Assembly (NCBI RefSeq): GCF_020567425.1
Contig: NZ_JAJCVJ010000002.1
Span: forward strand, 1,405,068 to 1,469,067
From: Salinirubrum litoreum
GTDB lineage: Archaea; Halobacteriota; Halobacteria; Halobacteriales; Haloferacaceae
Direction of reading: 5' to 3'
Length of the DNA stretch: 64,000 nt
Shown here one piece after another: positions 4,260-59,316 of this stretch. Within the stretch, counting starts at the first letter, position 1, and each line of letters starts with the position of its first letter. The notes beneath the pieces were generated by a model, which searched no databases, was not told the DNA's origin, and saw only the letters and a list, made by a program, of their open reading frames with translations. Made by a program: the position numbers and the translations under genes.

Positions 4260-5678
4260 ATGGCTCCCACCCGAGACGGCGACGCCCAGCAGACTGGGAT
4301 CGGGTTTCTCCCCGTCCTCGTCGCCAACGTGCTCCCCCTCGCGGGGGTGATCTGGTTCGGCTGGGACCCCGAGACGCTCGTCGCCGTCTACGCGCTCGAA
4401 CTCCTGGTGGCGTTACCGCTCGCGGGGGTGAAGGCGCTGTTCGCCGGGACACCGCCCGCCGCCGACCGTGAGAACGGCGTCTTCGACGTCGCCGGGAGCG
4501 ACCTCACGGCGAAACGAGGCAGTGTCACCGTCCACGAGCGATTACCGCCGATCTCTCCCCGGAACGTCCCGTTCGCCGTCGCGGTCGTCAGCGGGGGCGT
4601 GTGGGTCGGCTTCTTCGTCCTCGCCCCGGTCTCGGCGGTCGTAGCAGTCCGCGAGGTACTCGGCCGGCCGGCGGTACTGCTCGGTGTCGTCACGCTGGTC
4701 GCCGGGCAGGTCGTCGAGACGGCCACCACCTACTTCGGGCGCGGCCGGTACGCGACGGTCTCCCCGTACGCGGTCGTCGAGCGTCCGGCCCGCACGGGCC
4801 TTCTCCTCTCTGTCTTCCTGTTCGTCGTCACGCTGGGGGGAGCGACGCCGGTCCTCGTCGTGTTCGTGATCGCGAAGGTGCTCTTCGAGTGGTCCGGGGC
4901 CCGTGCAGAACGCGGCGTCGGCGGCCGACTCACCGGGTGGCTCTCCGGTCCCGACAGCGACACCACGGCCGACCCGGTCGACGTGCCCCCTGGGGACCCG
5001 TCGGCCACCGTCGACGTCGATCAGCGGTCGGTCGTCGCGGCCGCAGTCTGGCGTGTCGTCTCCGAGACGGGGCCGTTCTCCGTCGTGTTGGCGACGTTCG
5101 TCTGGCTCGGCGTCCCCGCGTTTCTCGGCGGGGGTGAGCCCACACCGACACTCTGGTTCGCGAGCGGTCTCGCCGGTCTCGCCCTCCTGGGACTCATGCT
5201 CGCCGGCGACGTCCTCGAGGTCGTTCTCGCGGACGGGTGGGAGACGTACGCTCGCGTGGGCGACCGACTCGTCGCGTACGATCGCCTGACCGGCGAGCCA
5301 CAGTGGACGACGCCGCTCGGCGAACTTCGCGACGTCACCGTCGTGGAGACGCGACCCGCCGACCGGTACTTCGGGACGCGGACGTTCACCGCGACGACTG
5401 GCTGGGGCGAGGACGCGACCGAGCGGACACTCGGTCCGGTCGGTGATCCGGAGACCTTCGTCGAGGCGTTCGATCTCCCCGTCCACTCGACCGACCTCTC
5501 GCCGCTCGACCGTCGGTTCGTCGGGGCTGCAGTCGGATCGCTCGTCCTCCTCGTCGCCGGTGCCGTCGTCGTGGTCGCCACACCGATCGGTCCGTCCGTC
5601 TCGTGGGTGGTTCTCCCGATGACGCTGCCGCTTCTCGGCGTCGTCCCGGTGGGGCTCTGGAAACTGGCACACCCCTGA
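4260..5678 (+). CDS. DUF6498-type membrane protein
   Basis: A 472-residue membrane protein with several hydrophobic helices, starting with a pair around residues 12-55 (LVANVLPLAGVIWFGW, then YALELLVALPLAGVKALFAG), more helices at about 105-215, and a C-terminal half with two further helix pairs around a soluble domain of about 100 residues. The N-terminal pattern of a helix, WFGWDPETLVAVYALEL and a second helix is what I associate with the haloarchaeal DUF6498 family. No catalytic motif was seen. It stands alone between a Usp gene and the Ahb gene. Function unknown. Confidence 0.8.
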   Translation: MAPTRDGDAQQTGIGFLPVLVANVLPLAGVIWFGWDPETLVAVYALELLVALPLAGVKALFAGTPPAADRENGVFDVAGSDLTAKRGSVTVHERLPPISPRNVPFAVAVVSGGVWVGFFVLAPVSAVVAVREVLGRPAVLLGVVTLVAGQVVETATTYFGRGRYATVSPYAVVERPARTGLLLSVFLFVVTLGGATPVLVVFVIAKVLFEWSGARAERGVGGRLTGWLSGPDSDTTADPVDVPPGDPSATVDVDQRSVVAAAVWRVVSETGPFSVVLATFVWLGVPAFLGGGEPTPTLWFASGLAGLALLGLMLAGDVLEVVLADGWETYARVGDRLVAYDRLTGEPQWTTPLGELRDVTVVETRPADRYFGTRTFTATTGWGEDATERTLGPVGDPETFVEAFDLPVHSTDLSPLDRRFVGAAVGSLVLLVAGAVVVVATPIGPSVSWVVLPMTLPLLGVVPVGLWKLAHP

Positions 5679-41228: not shown

Positions 41229-41513
41229 TCAATCGTCGGCCGTGTACGCGCCGCTTCGGTGCTCGATGCGGTGGACTTCGAGAACCGACGACTCCCTGTC
41301 GAGTACACACGCGAGTCGGTACTGCCCGACACGACACTTGGAGAACGGACCGCCGGTCAACGGTTCGAGGAAGTCGTCCGGATCGCGCCACTCCGAGTCG
41401 GTGATATCGTCCAGTTTCGAGACGATGCGGTCTCGGACGTGTGGGTCGAGCGCGTCGAACTGATCGACAGCACGCGGCGTAAACTTTCAGGTCCAGTCCT
41501 CGCTACTCGCCAT
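41229..41513 (-). pseudogene. RelE/ParE-like toxin broken by an in-frame TGA
   Basis: Reading from the ATG at 41513: MASSEDWT, then TGA (41489-41487), then KFTPRAVDQFDALDPHVRDR and on to a normal stop at 41231-41229, ending with HRIEHRSGAYTADD. The downstream part has the RelE pattern (FTPRAVDQFDALD, then DPDDFLEPLTGGPFSKCRVG and a YRL strand). RelE-family proteins commonly have Trp in this position ('DWTW'), so a single TGG-to-TGA change is the simplest explanation. The start overlaps the antitoxin's 3' end. Without readthrough only eight residues are made; no internal ATG would restore the N-terminal strand. Confidence 0.8.
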
Positions 41514-41793
41514 CGTCGTCCATCGTCCTGACGACTTCCTCACGCGACACGAGTTCGCTCTCCCCGGATCGCAGGTCGTGTTCACTCGCGGCGATCTGTT
41601 TCCACCCCTCCCGTGAGAACTCGGGGTGTTTGATCGCGTCACGCGCCGCGTACCGAAGGAACTCGCTTCGGGAGTTGAACCCCTCTCGTTGCCACGTCGC
41701 GTCGATGTCTTCGAGGAACGATTTGCTCAACCGAAGGTTGATCTGGACCGTCTCCGGTGCGTCGTCGCCGTCCTCGACACCAGCGGTCGACAT
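41503..41793 (-). CDS. ribbon-helix-helix antitoxin
   Basis: A 96-residue protein: an acidic N-terminal 15 residues, then TVQINLRLSKSFLEDIDATW and NSRSEFLRYAARDAIKH, the RHH DNA-binding motif, and a C-terminal acidic tail that would contact the toxin. I chose the ATG at 41793; a longer frame from 42150 overlaps the aglM-like fragment and is arginine-rich. It overlaps the start of the broken RelE-like toxin gene. The antitoxin frame is intact although its toxin is not. Confidence 0.85.
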   Translation of the reverse strand: MSTAGVEDGDDAPETVQINLRLSKSFLEDIDATWQREGFNSRSEFLRYAARDAIKHPEFSREGWKQIAASEHDLRSGESELVSREEVVRTMDDDGE

Positions 41794-53692: not shown

Positions 53693-54055
53693 TCACTTCG
53701 AGCGATCACTCGGATGGGGATTCTCCGAGCCGGCCTGTTCCCAGTCGTCCATCTGTTCTGGCCCGAGCGTCTCGTTCACACTCTCGAGACTTACCGAGAG
53801 GTTCGATGCCGACGCGAGTCGGTCCTGAGTGCCAATTGCCCAGTAGGGTGCTTTGTGTCGCACGAGGGCTCTGTCTTTCAGCCGGGAGAGGACGGCGCAC
53901 ACGACGTTCGGATCGATCCCCGTCGCCTCGGCGATCTCACCGCGCTCGAACGCCTGCTCGTCGTTGGCTCCGAGAAACTGGAGGATACGCTCTGCGTAGG
54001 TGTCTCCTGACTCGAAGGCCGATTCTCGCTCGAAGGTATCGATGCCGATTGGCAT
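53693..54055 (-). CDS. winged-helix protein, antitoxin-like paralogue 1
   Basis: A 120-residue protein from the ATG at 54055 (MPIGIDTFERESAFESG). It has a winged-helix core: AERILQFLGANDEQAFERGE, then VVCAVLSRLKDRALVRHKAP and YWAIG. Two close relatives lie at 54635 and 57671; the first of those is beside a PemK/MazF-like toxin, so this may be an orphan antitoxin or a regulator of that set. A longer start at 54115 overlaps the upstream gene and is possible. Confidence 0.72.
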   Translation of the reverse strand: MPIGIDTFERESAFESGDTYAERILQFLGANDEQAFERGEIAEATGIDPNVVCAVLSRLKDRALVRHKAPYWAIGTQDRLASASNLSVSLESVNETLGPEQMDDWEQAGSENPHPSDRSK

Positions 54056-54104
54056 CGGCTCTGTGTATTCGTCCCTTTGTTTGGCGCGTTTGTACGTTTG
54101 TAGG

Positions 54105-54386
54105 TCACGGATCACGGGAGTCGATACTCTCGATCAACTGGCCTAACGCCTCGACGAGTGGCGCATCCGGATCGGCTCGATACACCTTCTCGTCGGGAAG
54201 CTGTTCGAGCAACCCACACTGGAGATACCCCGGCAGGGCACGGAACACCGTCCCTTTCGTCACACCTGCCTCGGTAGCAAGTTCGGTCAGCGTGTACGTC
54301 TCACCGGCGGTCTCGACGACGAGAATCGTCACCCGACACCGCCCGCGTGAGGTGAACAGCGCCGAGAGCGTCTTCGCGGTCGTCAT
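54105..54386 (-). CDS. winged-helix DNA-binding protein
   Basis: A 93-residue protein starting MTTAKTLSALFTSRGRCRVT, with TLTELATEAGVTKGTVFRAL as the helix-turn-helix and LLEQLPDEKVYRADPDAP as the wing. It resembles small haloarchaeal MarR/ArsR-like regulators. Its ATG overlaps the stop of the small truncated SWIM-like gene (ATGA), so its expression is set by that leader. It is followed by winged-helix paralogue 1. Confidence 0.78.
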   Translation of the reverse strand: MTTAKTLSALFTSRGRCRVTILVVETAGETYTLTELATEAGVTKGTVFRALPGYLQCGLLEQLPDEKVYRADPDAPLVEALGQLIESIDSRDP

Positions 54387-54540: not shown

Positions 54541-54634
54541 CGAAAAACAGCTGGTACGCTTGGCGGAGTGACGAACTGACTCCGTGAGCGGAGGACTGAT
54601 TACACTAGTTAGCATACGGTTACAGTAGATTACA

Positions 54635-54997
54635 ATGCCCGTAGATTTCGAGAGTTACCATCCGAGTACCCTTCCGAACGAAGGGACGAACGGACGGCAG
54701 ATCCTCGAACACCTCGCACAGAATCCCGAACTCGGCTTCACGCCGAGTGAACTTGCCGACGAACTCGAGATTCCCCGAGGGAGTGTCGGAACGACACTGG
54801 GTCGTCTCGAAGAGCGCGGACTCGTTCGACACAAAGGAGACTACTGGGCGATCAACATCGAGGCGTACGATGCCCAGACAGCCAGCGAGATCGGCCTTCG
54901 GGCAGTTGCTGAGCAGTTCGAAGGCGACCATTACGATACGAACCCCGACTGGGATGCTGGGCTCTCGGATGTCGATGTAGAAGCGAGTGACGAGTGA
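54635..54997 (+). CDS. winged-helix antitoxin-like protein, paralogue 2
   Basis: A 120-residue protein beginning MPVDFESYHPSTLPNEGTNG, with GFTPSELADELEIPRGSVGT and LGRLEERGLVRHKGDYWAIN as the winged helix, closely similar to the proteins at 53693 and 57671. The stop overlaps the ATG of a PemK/MazF-like toxin gene (TGATG), which makes it the likely antitoxin and autorepressor of that pair. It is divergent from the SWIM-fragment/wHTH unit. Confidence 0.82.
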   Translation: MPVDFESYHPSTLPNEGTNGRQILEHLAQNPELGFTPSELADELEIPRGSVGTTLGRLEERGLVRHKGDYWAINIEAYDAQTASEIGLRAVAEQFEGDHYDTNPDWDAGLSDVDVEASDE

Positions 54998-55332
54998 TGC
55001 TCCAGCGTGGAAGTGTCGTCGTCGCTGCTGATCCGTACGGGAATACTCCCCGGCGACCGTACCTCGTACTGAGCGACGAGTCGCACCCGTTTGCGGGTGA
55101 ACAGTACATCGCCGCCGGGATTACGACAAAAGAATAGCCTCCGTCGATTCCGTTGGACGGACGGTTCGTCGAAGGCGGTCTCTCGGAACGATCATTCGTC
55201 TCTCCATGGGCTGTCGTCTCGCTCCGTCAGTCCGATATCGACCGGGCGGTCGCAATCGCCGACGAACGACTGGCGAGAGACGTGGCCGAACGACTCGCTC
55301 GATTCGTTGGCTACGCCCCGGTCGATACGTAG
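54997..55332 (+). pseudogene. PemK/MazF-like toxin interrupted by TAG
   Basis: The frame starts MLQRGSVVVAADPYGNTPRR and continues PYLVLSDESHPFAGEQYIAA to GITTKE, the N-terminal beta-barrel of PemK/MazF-like RNA cleavers. A TAG at 55135-55137 (codon 47) follows. The same frame then continues without another stop for 64 codons: PPSIPLDGRFVEGGLSERSF, VSPWAVVSLRQSDIDRAVAI and on to TAG at 55330. Both halves match one family, so a single nonsense change, not a natural end, is the simplest reading. The upstream winged-helix gene is intact. Confidence 0.8.
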
Positions 55333-55405: not shown

Positions 55406-56356
55406 CTACTGGCCGCCAGCCTTCTCGTCGATCCGTTCGATCAGTTCCCGCGCCGTCATAGCAATCGCCTCACAGCGGTCGGCGAGTGAGACGTCCTCCT
55501 CGTGACCCCACGCAGAGAGATACCACTGCGATCCACTCGTATCGAGACCGACGTGTCGCCCGACGATAGCCGCCGTTGCCTCGGCGTCGAGTTCGAAGGC
55601 GGCCGCTTGCTTCGAATCAGCAGGCGTCTCGGGATGCAACCGGGCGTGTGCGAGTTCGTGCAGGAACGTCCGGGCGAGGTCGGCCGTGTTCTCTCGATCC
55701 CGTATGTCGATCCGGTCGTCGGCCGATCCATACACGCCCCACGCAGAACCGTGGGGCCACTGCTCGTCGGCGAGTATGCGAACCGAGAGTCCCCAGTCGT
55801 CGGCGATCTGCTGGAGAATGTCGAGCAACCAGTCCGCCTCGCCGTGCGCTTCGTGCTGGAGCTCGGGCAGTGGCTCGCCCTCGGTCTGAGAGATGTCGAA
55901 CACCGCCACCGACCGGAAGCCGATCACTCGACGCGGCCACTCCTCGGTCGGCGTCTCCTCGTCACAGTCACCGTGCCCCTGCAGGAACTCGTCACACGAG
56001 GGACACACCCGCGCTCGAACCGGCGCGCGAATCCAGAGCGCCTGCTCGCCGGATTGGACCTGTCTCCCGAGTTCCTGCCACGCTCTGTACCCCGCCACCC
56101 GAGTCGCCTCTGGACACTGTCGTCGGATCAGAATCGAGTTGCGAACCGAGTAGTCGTGAAACTGCGCTTGCGCGGAGAGCCACTGCTCGAACTGCTCGCT
56201 TTCACAGGCGGTCTCGACATCCTGTTGGAGCTCTTCGAGCCACTCCTCGATTGTCGCGTGCAACAGGTCGTCTCTCCGGCCTTCGTCTCGACACTGCTCG
56301 CAGTACTCGGCGTCGTCACTTGGTACGTCGATTCCGTCGTTGTCTCCGGTTGGCAT
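55406..56356 (-). CDS. ArdC-like ssDNA-binding domain with HExxH metallopeptidase
   Basis: A 316-residue protein. Residues about 30-120 (FHDYSVRNSILIRRQCPEAT and AWQELGRQVQSGEQALWIRA) match the ArdC N-terminal domain of plasmid anti-restriction proteins. A Cys pair follows (CPSCDEF), and residues about 235-260 carry the zincin motif FLHELAHARLHPET. ArdC-type proteins protect or process incoming plasmid DNA. The ATG at 56356 was chosen for its family-like start and because an eight-base perfect stem (TGCGCCTC/GAGGCGCA) lies just upstream. It is on the same strand as the HYHPPP gene (upstream). Confidence 0.85.
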   Translation of the reverse strand: MPTGDNDGIDVPSDDAEYCEQCRDEGRRDDLLHATIEEWLEELQQDVETACESEQFEQWLSAQAQFHDYSVRNSILIRRQCPEATRVAGYRAWQELGRQVQSGEQALWIRAPVRARVCPSCDEFLQGHGDCDEETPTEEWPRRVIGFRSVAVFDISQTEGEPLPELQHEAHGEADWLLDILQQIADDWGLSVRILADEQWPHGSAWGVYGSADDRIDIRDRENTADLARTFLHELAHARLHPETPADSKQAAAFELDAEATAAIVGRHVGLDTSGSQWYLSAWGHEEDVSLADRCEAIAMTARELIERIDEKAGGQ

Positions 56357-56403
56357 CTTCTGCGCCTCCGCCCGTCGAGGCGCACAGATATACGACGCAC
56401 AGC

Positions 56404-56838
56404 TTACCCGTCGTCTGCGTCGTGAAGTGTCGTGACACGCTCGTCGATCCACTCACAGACCCAGAAGAGACAGTCGAGTGGATGTTCCTCGGTGAGTGGA
56501 CTCGCCTCGGCCGACCCAGCAGTCGGCGGTGGGTGGTAGTGGGCGTTCGGCCCGTCCGGCTTGGGATGGTGGTCGAAGCGACACTCCCAGGCACCGTCTG
56601 CAGTGTCCTCTCGATAGTGAAACGAATACGTCCCGTCCGTGAACCACCGCACGTCGAGTCGTCCCGCGTCGATAGCGGCTGGATACTGGTCGGCATCGAG
56701 CGACAGTTCGAGCACGCGTGGGCTGATCGGGTCGGGTCGAAACCGCCAGTCGGTCACGAGCGGGTGTGTCGTGGCTCGCCGACCGAGTGTTTCGAGGGTT
56801 GGAATATCGAGCGGCCCACCAGCTGACTCCGATGTCAC
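56404..56838 (-). CDS. 'HYHPPP' protein, copy 1 (TumE/DUF6516-like?)
   Basis: A 144-residue protein containing WFTDGTYSFHYREDTADGAW, then RFDHHPKPDGPNAHYHPPPT and a C-terminal helix FWVCEWIDERV. The same pattern occurs in the partial gene at 63573. It resembles the strand-HHxP pattern of TumE-like (DUF6516) toxins, but I am not certain. Its ATG overlaps the winged-helix gene's stop by four bases, giving a two-gene operon with the regulator first, as in toxin-antitoxin pairs. Confidence 0.65.
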   Translation of the reverse strand: MTSESAGGPLDIPTLETLGRRATTHPLVTDWRFRPDPISPRVLELSLDADQYPAAIDAGRLDVRWFTDGTYSFHYREDTADGAWECRFDHHPKPDGPNAHYHPPPTAGSAEASPLTEEHPLDCLFWVCEWIDERVTTLHDADDG

Positions 56839-57590: not shown

Positions 57591-57670
57591 CGACGTGATT
57601 TCTCCTTCGGCGCTTTCGAAGCTTTCACTCCTAACACTCTTTACAGCGGATGACGTACCCCGATTCAACG

Positions 57671-57991
57671 ATGTCCATCGACCGAGATACCTTCGATAAC
57701 ACGAGCGAAGACGACCTCGAAGAACTCTCCGTTCCGGATCAGGTCCTCGGGTTTCTCGCCGCCAACGAGGATCGGGCGTTCAAGGCTCGCGAAATCGCCT
57801 CTCAGATCGGCGTCGATGAGGGCGCGGTCAGCACCGCTCTCTCACGGTTGAAGGACCGTGGTCTGGTCGAACACAAGGCGACGTACTGGGCGGTGACTGA
57901 CGACGCCGAGCGACTCGACGGATACAGCGGGTACGAACGTGCGACCGCCCTGTTCAACCAGCAACTCGGTACAGAGAACAAGGAGTCGTGA
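57671..57991 (+). CDS. winged-helix antitoxin-like protein, paralogue 3
   Basis: A 106-residue protein beginning MSIDRDTFDNTSEDDLEELS, with VLGFLAANEDRAFKAREIAS and VDEGAVSTALSRLKDRGLVE then HKATYWAV, closely similar to the proteins at 53693 and 54635. Starts at 57650 or 57671 are both possible. Its stop lies at the right end of tnpB element 2; a toxin gene, present in the homologous place downstream of paralogue 2, is absent. Confidence 0.8.
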   Translation: MSIDRDTFDNTSEDDLEELSVPDQVLGFLAANEDRAFKAREIASQIGVDEGAVSTALSRLKDRGLVEHKATYWAVTDDAERLDGYSGYERATALFNQQLGTENKES

Positions 57992-58041: not shown

Positions 58042-59316
58042 TCAGTCGTCGTTGGCAGTGGGTTCCGACTCTTGAAACGGTGTGAGTGTCATTTGCGAGG
58101 GTGTCCCGCTCTGCTCACACTGAGTCGTGGCCGTGTCACTACGGCTCCCGTCCTGTGGCGAGTCATCGCCTACCTGTTTCACTGGTAGGCTCTCTCCCCA
58201 CGGGTCTACGCGCCGTGCGATGTTCGCACTCGCGTTAATATCCGCTTGAAACGTTGAAACGTGGCACTCAGGATTCTTGCACTTGAACTCAGCCTGTCGG
58301 GGTCGATACCCCACGTGCTTGCACGAATGACACGTCTTCGAGGTATACTGCGGGTGGACGTACCGGACTGGAATCCCGGCGTCCTTCGCCTTGTCTTCGA
58401 TTCGACCCTGCAAGCGAGCGAACGCCCACGAGTGTAGGCGTCGGTTCATGTACTTCCCGTAGTCTAACGACTCGCGGATGTACGCCAAGTCCTCCATTAC
58501 CATAACAGGGGTATCGAATTGTTTAGCGTACTCCACAGACTCACGAGATGCCTTCTCGATAATGTCTGTGAGTCGGTTCTGGTAGTACGAGAATCGCTCC
58601 TCGATACGCCACTCAGAAGCGTCTCGCTCTTGGAGTCGCTTGAGCGTCGTAAACATCTCTTTGCGGATTCGCTTGGCTTTTTGCCCGTTGATTAACAGTG
58701 GTTTCGTGGGAGTGTCGTGTTGGAGGGCACAGCCCGTGACCAACATCGACTCGCCAATATCGAACCCAATCCGAGTCGGATTCTCGGGTAGTTCTGAGGT
58801 GTCCGTGATTTCGTATTCGACGGTAACGTGGAGCGTCCACGTCTTCCGGTGTCTCTGCAAGCGAAGTTCGCCTACTTTGGTACTCGATTCCTCATTGAGA
58901 AGGTCGTCCCACAGCCCCTCCTGTTCAGGATTCAGTCGGAGTGGAATCCAGAAGTTGGTTCCACGACCGGGTTGCGGAACGTTCCAACAGATTTCGTACT
59001 CTCGCTCGGAGTCACGGTCGAACTTCCCGGCCCGATTCACGAAGCGGAGTGGGTGTTCGTCGTCTAACTCGTTGGCGTTGTACGTGTTGTGGAGTTTTGG
59101 GACGTAGGATTTGAGGGCGTCTTTCGCTTGGTACGGCAGGGTGTACGGAGTCACCACGTCGTTCGTGGCACTCATCGTCGTACAGTCTTGCTCGAAGGCG
59201 TCGTTGAGTGCGTCTCGGTATTCAGACAGCGTTTGCTGGAGGCGTTGCTCTTTGCACCGAGTTGGTGGTGCGAGCGTGGCTTCCAGCGTCTTATTCGCCG
59301 TCTGCGTCGTTGACAT
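58042..59316 (-). CDS. tnpB: TnpB, RNA-guided nuclease of element 2
   Basis: A 424-residue TnpB with intact RuvC residues Asp186 (RIGFDIGESMLV), Glu275 (MVMEDLAYIRES) and Asp359 (FQADINASAN). The zinc finger is Cys329, Cys332, Cys346 and Cys351. It differs strongly from the TnpB of element 1, so the two belong to different subgroups. No frameshift is seen. The ATG at 59316 overlaps the small upstream gene by 26 bases. Confidence 0.95.
   Translation of the reverse strand: MSTTQTANKTLEATLAPPTRCKEQRLQQTLSEYRDALNDAFEQDCTTMSATNDVVTPYTLPYQAKDALKSYVPKLHNTYNANELDDEHPLRFVNRAGKFDRDSEREYEICWNVPQPGRGTNFWIPLRLNPEQEGLWDDLLNEESSTKVGELRLQRHRKTWTLHVTVEYEITDTSELPENPTRIGFDIGESMLVTGCALQHDTPTKPLLINGQKAKRIRKEMFTTLKRLQERDASEWRIEERFSYYQNRLTDIIEKASRESVEYAKQFDTPVMVMEDLAYIRESLDYGKYMNRRLHSWAFARLQGRIEDKAKDAGIPVRYVHPQYTSKTCHSCKHVGYRPRQAEFKCKNPECHVSTFQADINASANIARRVDPWGESLPVKQVGDDSPQDGSRSDTATTQCEQSGTPSQMTLTPFQESEPTANDD

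What the first reader, a model, noticed from the sequence alone, without database searches (positions are those of the whole stretch)
54997..55332. PemK/MazF-like toxin interrupted by TAG at codon 47
Both the 46-residue N-terminal part and the 64-codon continuation after TAG belong to one toxin fold, in the same frame. Its winged-helix partner, whose stop overlaps the toxin ATG, is intact. Together with the RelE case, two toxins of different families are each broken by a single nonsense codon within 14 kb.
Basis: partly seen in the sequence, partly recalled or inferred. Interest (0 to 1): 0.7.

Follow-up and report, generated by a model that had tools for sequence, protein, structure and literature searches.

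The report
Broken archaeal toxin, antitoxin kept intact
A salt-loving archaeon carries a small toxin-antitoxin gene pair in which a stop codon has cut the toxin gene in half while the antitoxin gene stays intact, and this is one of at least a dozen separate toxin losses in the same gene family, which is ordinary decay seen unusually clearly.

Summary
A 120-aa winged-helix gene (54635-54997) overlaps by one base a 111-codon PemK/MazF-like reading frame that is interrupted by TAG at codon 47 (55135-55137). Intact relatives up to 78% identical read through this position with a nearly invariant tyrosine, and the frame after TAG is still conserved. No pyrrolysine synthetase is present, so this is a broken toxin gene, not recoding. 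A second copy on another replicon of the same genome is also broken, by a deletion after codon 42. Among 33 assessable antitoxin loci of this subfamily in Halobacteria, 13 have lost the toxin (stops, frameshifts, deletions, insertion-sequence ends) and 20 are intact. No intact toxin lacks its antitoxin. The antitoxin keeps a 10-bp-spaced TTAC repeat at its start codon and evolves under purifying selection even where the toxin is gone. Best reading: a haloarchaeal type II-like pair whose toxin decays repeatedly and whose antitoxin survives as an autoregulated solitary gene, perhaps an anti-addiction antidote (inferred). The lesion itself is ordinary; the one-way decay is the useful part. Sequencing error at this base cannot be tested here.

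The parts
54600..54634 (+). putative operator/promoter of the antitoxin gene: TTAC at -35, -15 and -5 from the ATG (10-bp phasing)
   Evidence: TTAC at -4 to -6 in 36 of 36 loci and a 10-bp TTAC pair in most of them (31 or 32 of 36), including loci with broken or absent toxin. In the genome the 19-mer with up to 3 mismatches occurs only before the two antitoxin copies.
54635..54997 (+). intact winged-helix (MarR_2-like) putative antitoxin, 120 aa
   Evidence: Pfam MarR_2 E=2e-10; subfamily of 35 hits at 152 bits or more in 391 genomes, next hit 110 bits
54997..55137 (+). toxin N-terminal part, 46 codons plus TAG
55135..55137 (+). premature TAG at codon 47, where relatives have a nearly invariant tyrosine
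55138..55332 (+). in-frame continuation, 64 codons plus terminal TAG, not expected to be translated
   Evidence: aligned end to end with intact relatives; all subfamily-invariant residues after the stop retained

Best explanation
This is the remnant of a haloarchaeal type II-like toxin-antitoxin pair: a winged-helix antitoxin/autorepressor and a MazF/PemK-fold toxin, translationally coupled by an ATG/TGA overlap. In this lineage a recent nonsense mutation stops the toxin at codon 47. The product lacks the second half of the barrel and the C-terminal helix and should be inactive (inferred). The antitoxin and its operator are intact and most likely still made. Shown by sequence: toxin-only decay by about 12 different lesions across the subfamily, no intact toxin without its antitoxin, and purifying selection on the antitoxin after toxin loss. 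Inferred: that the encoded toxin is toxic, that the TTAC repeat is the antitoxin's binding site, and that the surviving antitoxin is kept as a solitary autoregulated gene, possibly an antidote against incoming relatives (anti-addiction).
For: Intact relatives span the stop. No PylS above cut-off. The C4 copy in the same genome is broken by a different lesion. Antitoxin-ascertained census: 13 of 33 without functional toxin, 20 intact. Toxin-ascertained census: every intact toxin has an intact adjacent antitoxin. Seven plasmid records of PLSDB repeat the pattern, three of them with toxin absent or truncated. Antitoxin dN/dS is 0.04-0.23 in pairs that have both lost the toxin and 0.06-0.13 in intact pairs. 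G034 and G026b share a toxin-less junction, yet their antitoxins differ at 10 synonymous and 2 nonsynonymous codons. An intact relative is predicted with a MazF fold: pLDDT 77.5, best PDB matches all MazF.
Against: Toxicity, antitoxin activity and DNA binding are untested for this subfamily. The Pfam match is below the curated threshold. The structure model rests on 14 sequences. The base at 55135-55137 cannot be checked in reads; all invariant residues after the stop are kept, so a very recent mutation or an error looks the same in sequence. Loci were scored by hand rules; two with displaced or mutated start codons (G114, G026a) were left out of both counts.
Confidence: 0.85

Rival explanations
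1. Sequencing or assembly error at 55135-55137; the toxin is really intact.
For: Single-base lesion; every invariant residue after the stop is kept; reads not available.
Against: The assembly is 5 contigs and 99.9% complete. The sister copy is broken by a deletion. Related loci are broken by many kinds of lesion. The part after the stop shows a weakly raised dN/dS: 0.29 against the nearest intact relative, versus 0.13 between two intact relatives; numbers too small to be conclusive.
Confidence: 0.08
2. The 46-residue peptide is itself a functional, selected product, such as a modulator of the antitoxin.
For: Three dead alleles of the nearest clade (window, C4, SYNS111) all break in codons 41-47 and leave a similar N-terminal part. 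Window-C4 dN/dS of the N-terminal 42 codons is 0.08.
Against: SYNS111 also has a frameshift near codon 25. Other dead alleles break at codons 18, 19, 64 and 71 or lack the gene. No stand-alone homologues elsewhere. The low dN/dS may predate truncation.
Confidence: 0.04
3. TAG is read through (pyrrolysine or programmed recoding), giving a full-length toxin.
For: Frame after TAG is conserved.
Against: No PylS above the family cut-off in the genome. Relatives have an ordinary sense codon there. The gene's own terminal codon is also TAG.
Confidence: 0.01
4. The pair is not a toxin-antitoxin system but a regulator plus a dispensable MazF-fold accessory protein; loss of the second gene is then simple relaxation.
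For: No functional data; deposited records call intact copies 'hypothetical protein'.
Against: MazF fold; coupled start/stop; strictly one-way loss, as expected if the second gene is harmful without the first; some diverged relatives (36-44% identical) are annotated PemK/MazF toxins.
Confidence: 0.15

Closest known systems
MazF/PemK endoribonuclease toxins (Pfam PF02452; e.g. M. tuberculosis MazF-mt3, B. subtilis MazF/YdcE)
   Same: Predicted fold, length about 110 aa, small two-gene operon, conserved Arg-Pro and Thr in the N-terminal half
   Different: About 12-23% identity to solved structures, sub-threshold Pfam score, winged-helix partner instead of MazE; here truncated
Solitary antitoxins / anti-addiction antitoxins (ccdEch of Erwinia, described in PMC2654758)
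   Same: A chromosomal relative of a plasmid toxin-antitoxin pair that could protect against the plasmid toxin
   Different: Cross-neutralisation is not shown here; the antitoxin is a winged-helix protein and its own toxin is broken
Orphan methyltransferases of Halobacteria (PMC6471742)
   Same: In the same class of archaea, the protective half of a two-part system is conserved while the harmful half is patchy
   Different: Restriction-modification, not toxin-antitoxin; only the title and opening of the abstract were read

Membership tests
MazF/PemK toxin family (as a broken member) | Profile match to PF02452 | tested here: inconclusive
   E=4e-4, 21.0 bits against cut-off 23.1; 7 of 14 members of A1 match, best 5e-4
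MazF/PemK toxin family (as a broken member) | MazF-type fold | tested here: met
   Model of intact relative L012; the listed PDB matches are MazF-family entries, best E 4.9e-4, TM about 0.6
MazF/PemK toxin family (as a broken member) | Complete reading frame in this copy | tested here: not met
   TAG at codon 47
MazF/PemK toxin family (as a broken member) | Sequence-specific RNase activity | not testable with these tools
   needs an assay of an intact relative
Type II toxin-antitoxin system | Small adjacent antitoxin gene, usually upstream and coupled | tested here: met
   One-base overlap here; adjacent in all intact loci
Type II toxin-antitoxin system | Antitoxin binds its own promoter | tested here: inconclusive
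   Conserved 10-bp-spaced TTAC repeats at the start codon; binding not tested
Type II toxin-antitoxin system | Toxin harmful, antitoxin neutralises it | not testable with these tools
   Only indirect: one-way loss

The most novel reading that the evidence does not exclude
Across Halobacteria this winged-helix antitoxin subfamily is actively maintained by selection after toxin loss, as a standing anti-addiction or regulatory gene with its own TTAC-repeat operator, so that the toxin is repeatedly shed and the antidote kept.
Probability: 0.35. Interest if true: 0.5.

Novelty: new member of a known kind. Interest (0 to 1): 0.3.

Why it matters
The lesion alone is routine. The census gives a clean natural experiment: one antitoxin subfamily, about a dozen different toxin lesions, no opposite case. 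It supports calling a mostly unannotated haloarchaeal gene pair a real toxin-antitoxin system and makes the question of why solitary antitoxins persist directly testable in genetically tractable haloarchaea.

Tried and rejected
Pyrrolysine decoding: no PylS above cut-off; the weak hit is of the kind also seen in control genomes. Stand-alone 46-aa family: not found. Phage and viral origin: antitoxin not found in phage records or in IMG/VR with a single-sequence query. PADLOC: no match for the intact toxin; only generic helix-turn-helix matches for the antitoxin. Literature: no paper found describing this haloarchaeal winged-helix/PemK pair, though the library lacks most subscription journals. 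The genus has a single genome, so no strain comparison was possible.

Full report
What is there. In the window a 120-residue winged-helix gene (54635-54997) is followed, with a one-base TGA/ATG overlap, by a frame of 111 codons interrupted by TAG at codon 47. The joined frame matches PemK_toxin weakly over its whole length; neither half does alone. The window lies on a 1.47-Mb contig of a 4.06-Mb genome in 5 contigs, the only genome of its genus in the collection. Relatives are all Halobacteria, and the same GTDB family holds Halorubrum and Salinigranum.

The stop is a lesion. The nearest intact copies (G166 = Salinigranum marinum ZS-10 plasmid, G142, and G149 = Halorubrum sp. Boch-26) are 75-78% identical across the stop and carry tyrosine there, a nearly invariant position. 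No pyrrolysyl-tRNA synthetase passes its cut-off. Every subfamily-invariant residue after the stop is still present, so the mutation looks recent. dN/dS against the nearest intact relative is 0.06 before the stop and 0.29 after it, compared with 0.07 and 0.13 between two intact relatives. This hints at relaxed constraint, but the numbers are small.

Second copy. On contig C4 of the same genome the pair occurs again: antitoxin 90% identical, toxin reduced to 44 codons because DNA from about codon 43 to the 3' end of the convergent ArdC-like gene is deleted. Neither copy can make a full toxin. A diverged pair at C2:64.4-65.1 kb has an intact toxin frame, about 40% identical.

Census. A class-wide search (391 genomes) with the antitoxin gives a clean subfamily of 35 hits at 152 bits or more, the next being 110. 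Reading the gene behind each, with the G166 plasmid copy and a second G166 copy added: 20 intact toxins; 10 broken ones (window TAG 47; C4 deletion; G385 = Halomicroarcula SYNS111 frameshift near codon 25 plus an insertion-sequence-like end near codon 41; G390 = Haloarcula mannanilytica stop 64; G224 stop 64; G207 stop 71; G045 break after 18; G023 stop 19; G300 remnant; G166 chromosomal copy frameshifted); and 3 loci with no toxin (G047, G034, G026b, the last two sharing a junction). Left out: G035 (contig end), G114 and G026a (altered start codons), G340 (both genes disrupted). That is 13 of 33 without functional toxin, from about 12 distinct lesions. In the reverse search with the toxin every intact toxin frame of the subfamily has an intact antitoxin next to it. 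A sign test on 12 lesions to 0 gives 2^-12, about 2e-4; it ignores relatedness, but the lesions differ from one another, and the antitoxin tree needs about ten changes of toxin status. Seven plasmid records of PLSDB, not fully independent, show the same: three toxin-less or truncated (two Haloferax, one Haladaptatus), and Haladaptatus caseinilyticus departs at the toxin C-terminus.

The antitoxin persists. All 36 loci have TTAC 4-6 bases before the start codon, and most have a second one exactly 10 bp further up. In the genome the motif with up to 3 mismatches occurs only before the two antitoxin copies, so the simplest target is the gene's own promoter. Antitoxin dN/dS in pairs that have both lost the toxin (0.04-0.23) overlaps that of intact pairs (0.06-0.13). 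In G034/G026b, which share a toxin-less junction, differences are 10 synonymous to 2 nonsynonymous codons (one-sided binomial 4e-5 against a 75% neutral expectation).

Mechanism. An intact relative is predicted with a MazF fold (pLDDT 77.5 on 14 sequences; top PDB matches all MazF). By established knowledge of MazF, the truncated product would lack the second half of the barrel and the C-terminal helix. It keeps the conserved Arg20 and Thr44 but should not fold or cleave RNA (inferred). The one-way loss is what an antidote-poison pair predicts: the poison can go, the antidote cannot go first. Why the antidote stays afterwards is open: anti-addiction (model in PMC2654758), regulation, or slow decay. 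G166 also holds an antitoxin copy split in two, so antitoxins do decay eventually.

Unexplained. Three dead alleles of the nearest clade break within codons 41-47 (about 1% by chance if breaks were uniform, estimated after the fact). Three antitoxin-like genes lie within about 4.3 kb in this window, none with an intact toxin.

Noticed in passing
window 57650-57991 (+) and 58042-59316 (-): Another winged-helix antitoxin-like gene, 77% identical to the one at C2:64.4 kb that has an intact toxin. Here its 3' end and the toxin are replaced by a hairpin-like insertion-sequence end next to a TnpB-like gene.
   Followed up: partly
window 53693-54115 (-): A third winged-helix gene of the same kind with no PemK-like frame detected behind it.
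   Followed up: partly
window 41229-41513 (-): ParE/RelE-fold toxin frame stopped at codon 9 by TGA (41487-41489), behind an intact RHH gene 41503-41793.
   Followed up: partly
L008 3863-4458 (C2:63.9-64.5 kb): Winged-helix gene followed by what looks like a PemK N-terminal stub of about 20 residues, just before the intact pair at 4391-5109.
   Followed up: no
window 55406-56452 (-): ArdC-like N-terminal domain plus zincin gene converging on the broken toxin; also next to the C4 copy, where the deletion joins the toxin stub to its 3' end.
   Followed up: partly
L064 (G114): The overlapping antitoxin stop and toxin start are both altered, extending the antitoxin frame into the toxin.
   Followed up: partly
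L082 and L107 (G340): Toxin split between two places about 130 kb apart, as if by a rearrangement inside the gene.
   Followed up: no
NZ_CP100462.1 372715-373050 (L115): The intact toxin is annotated from an internal start as 'hypothetical protein'.
   Followed up: no
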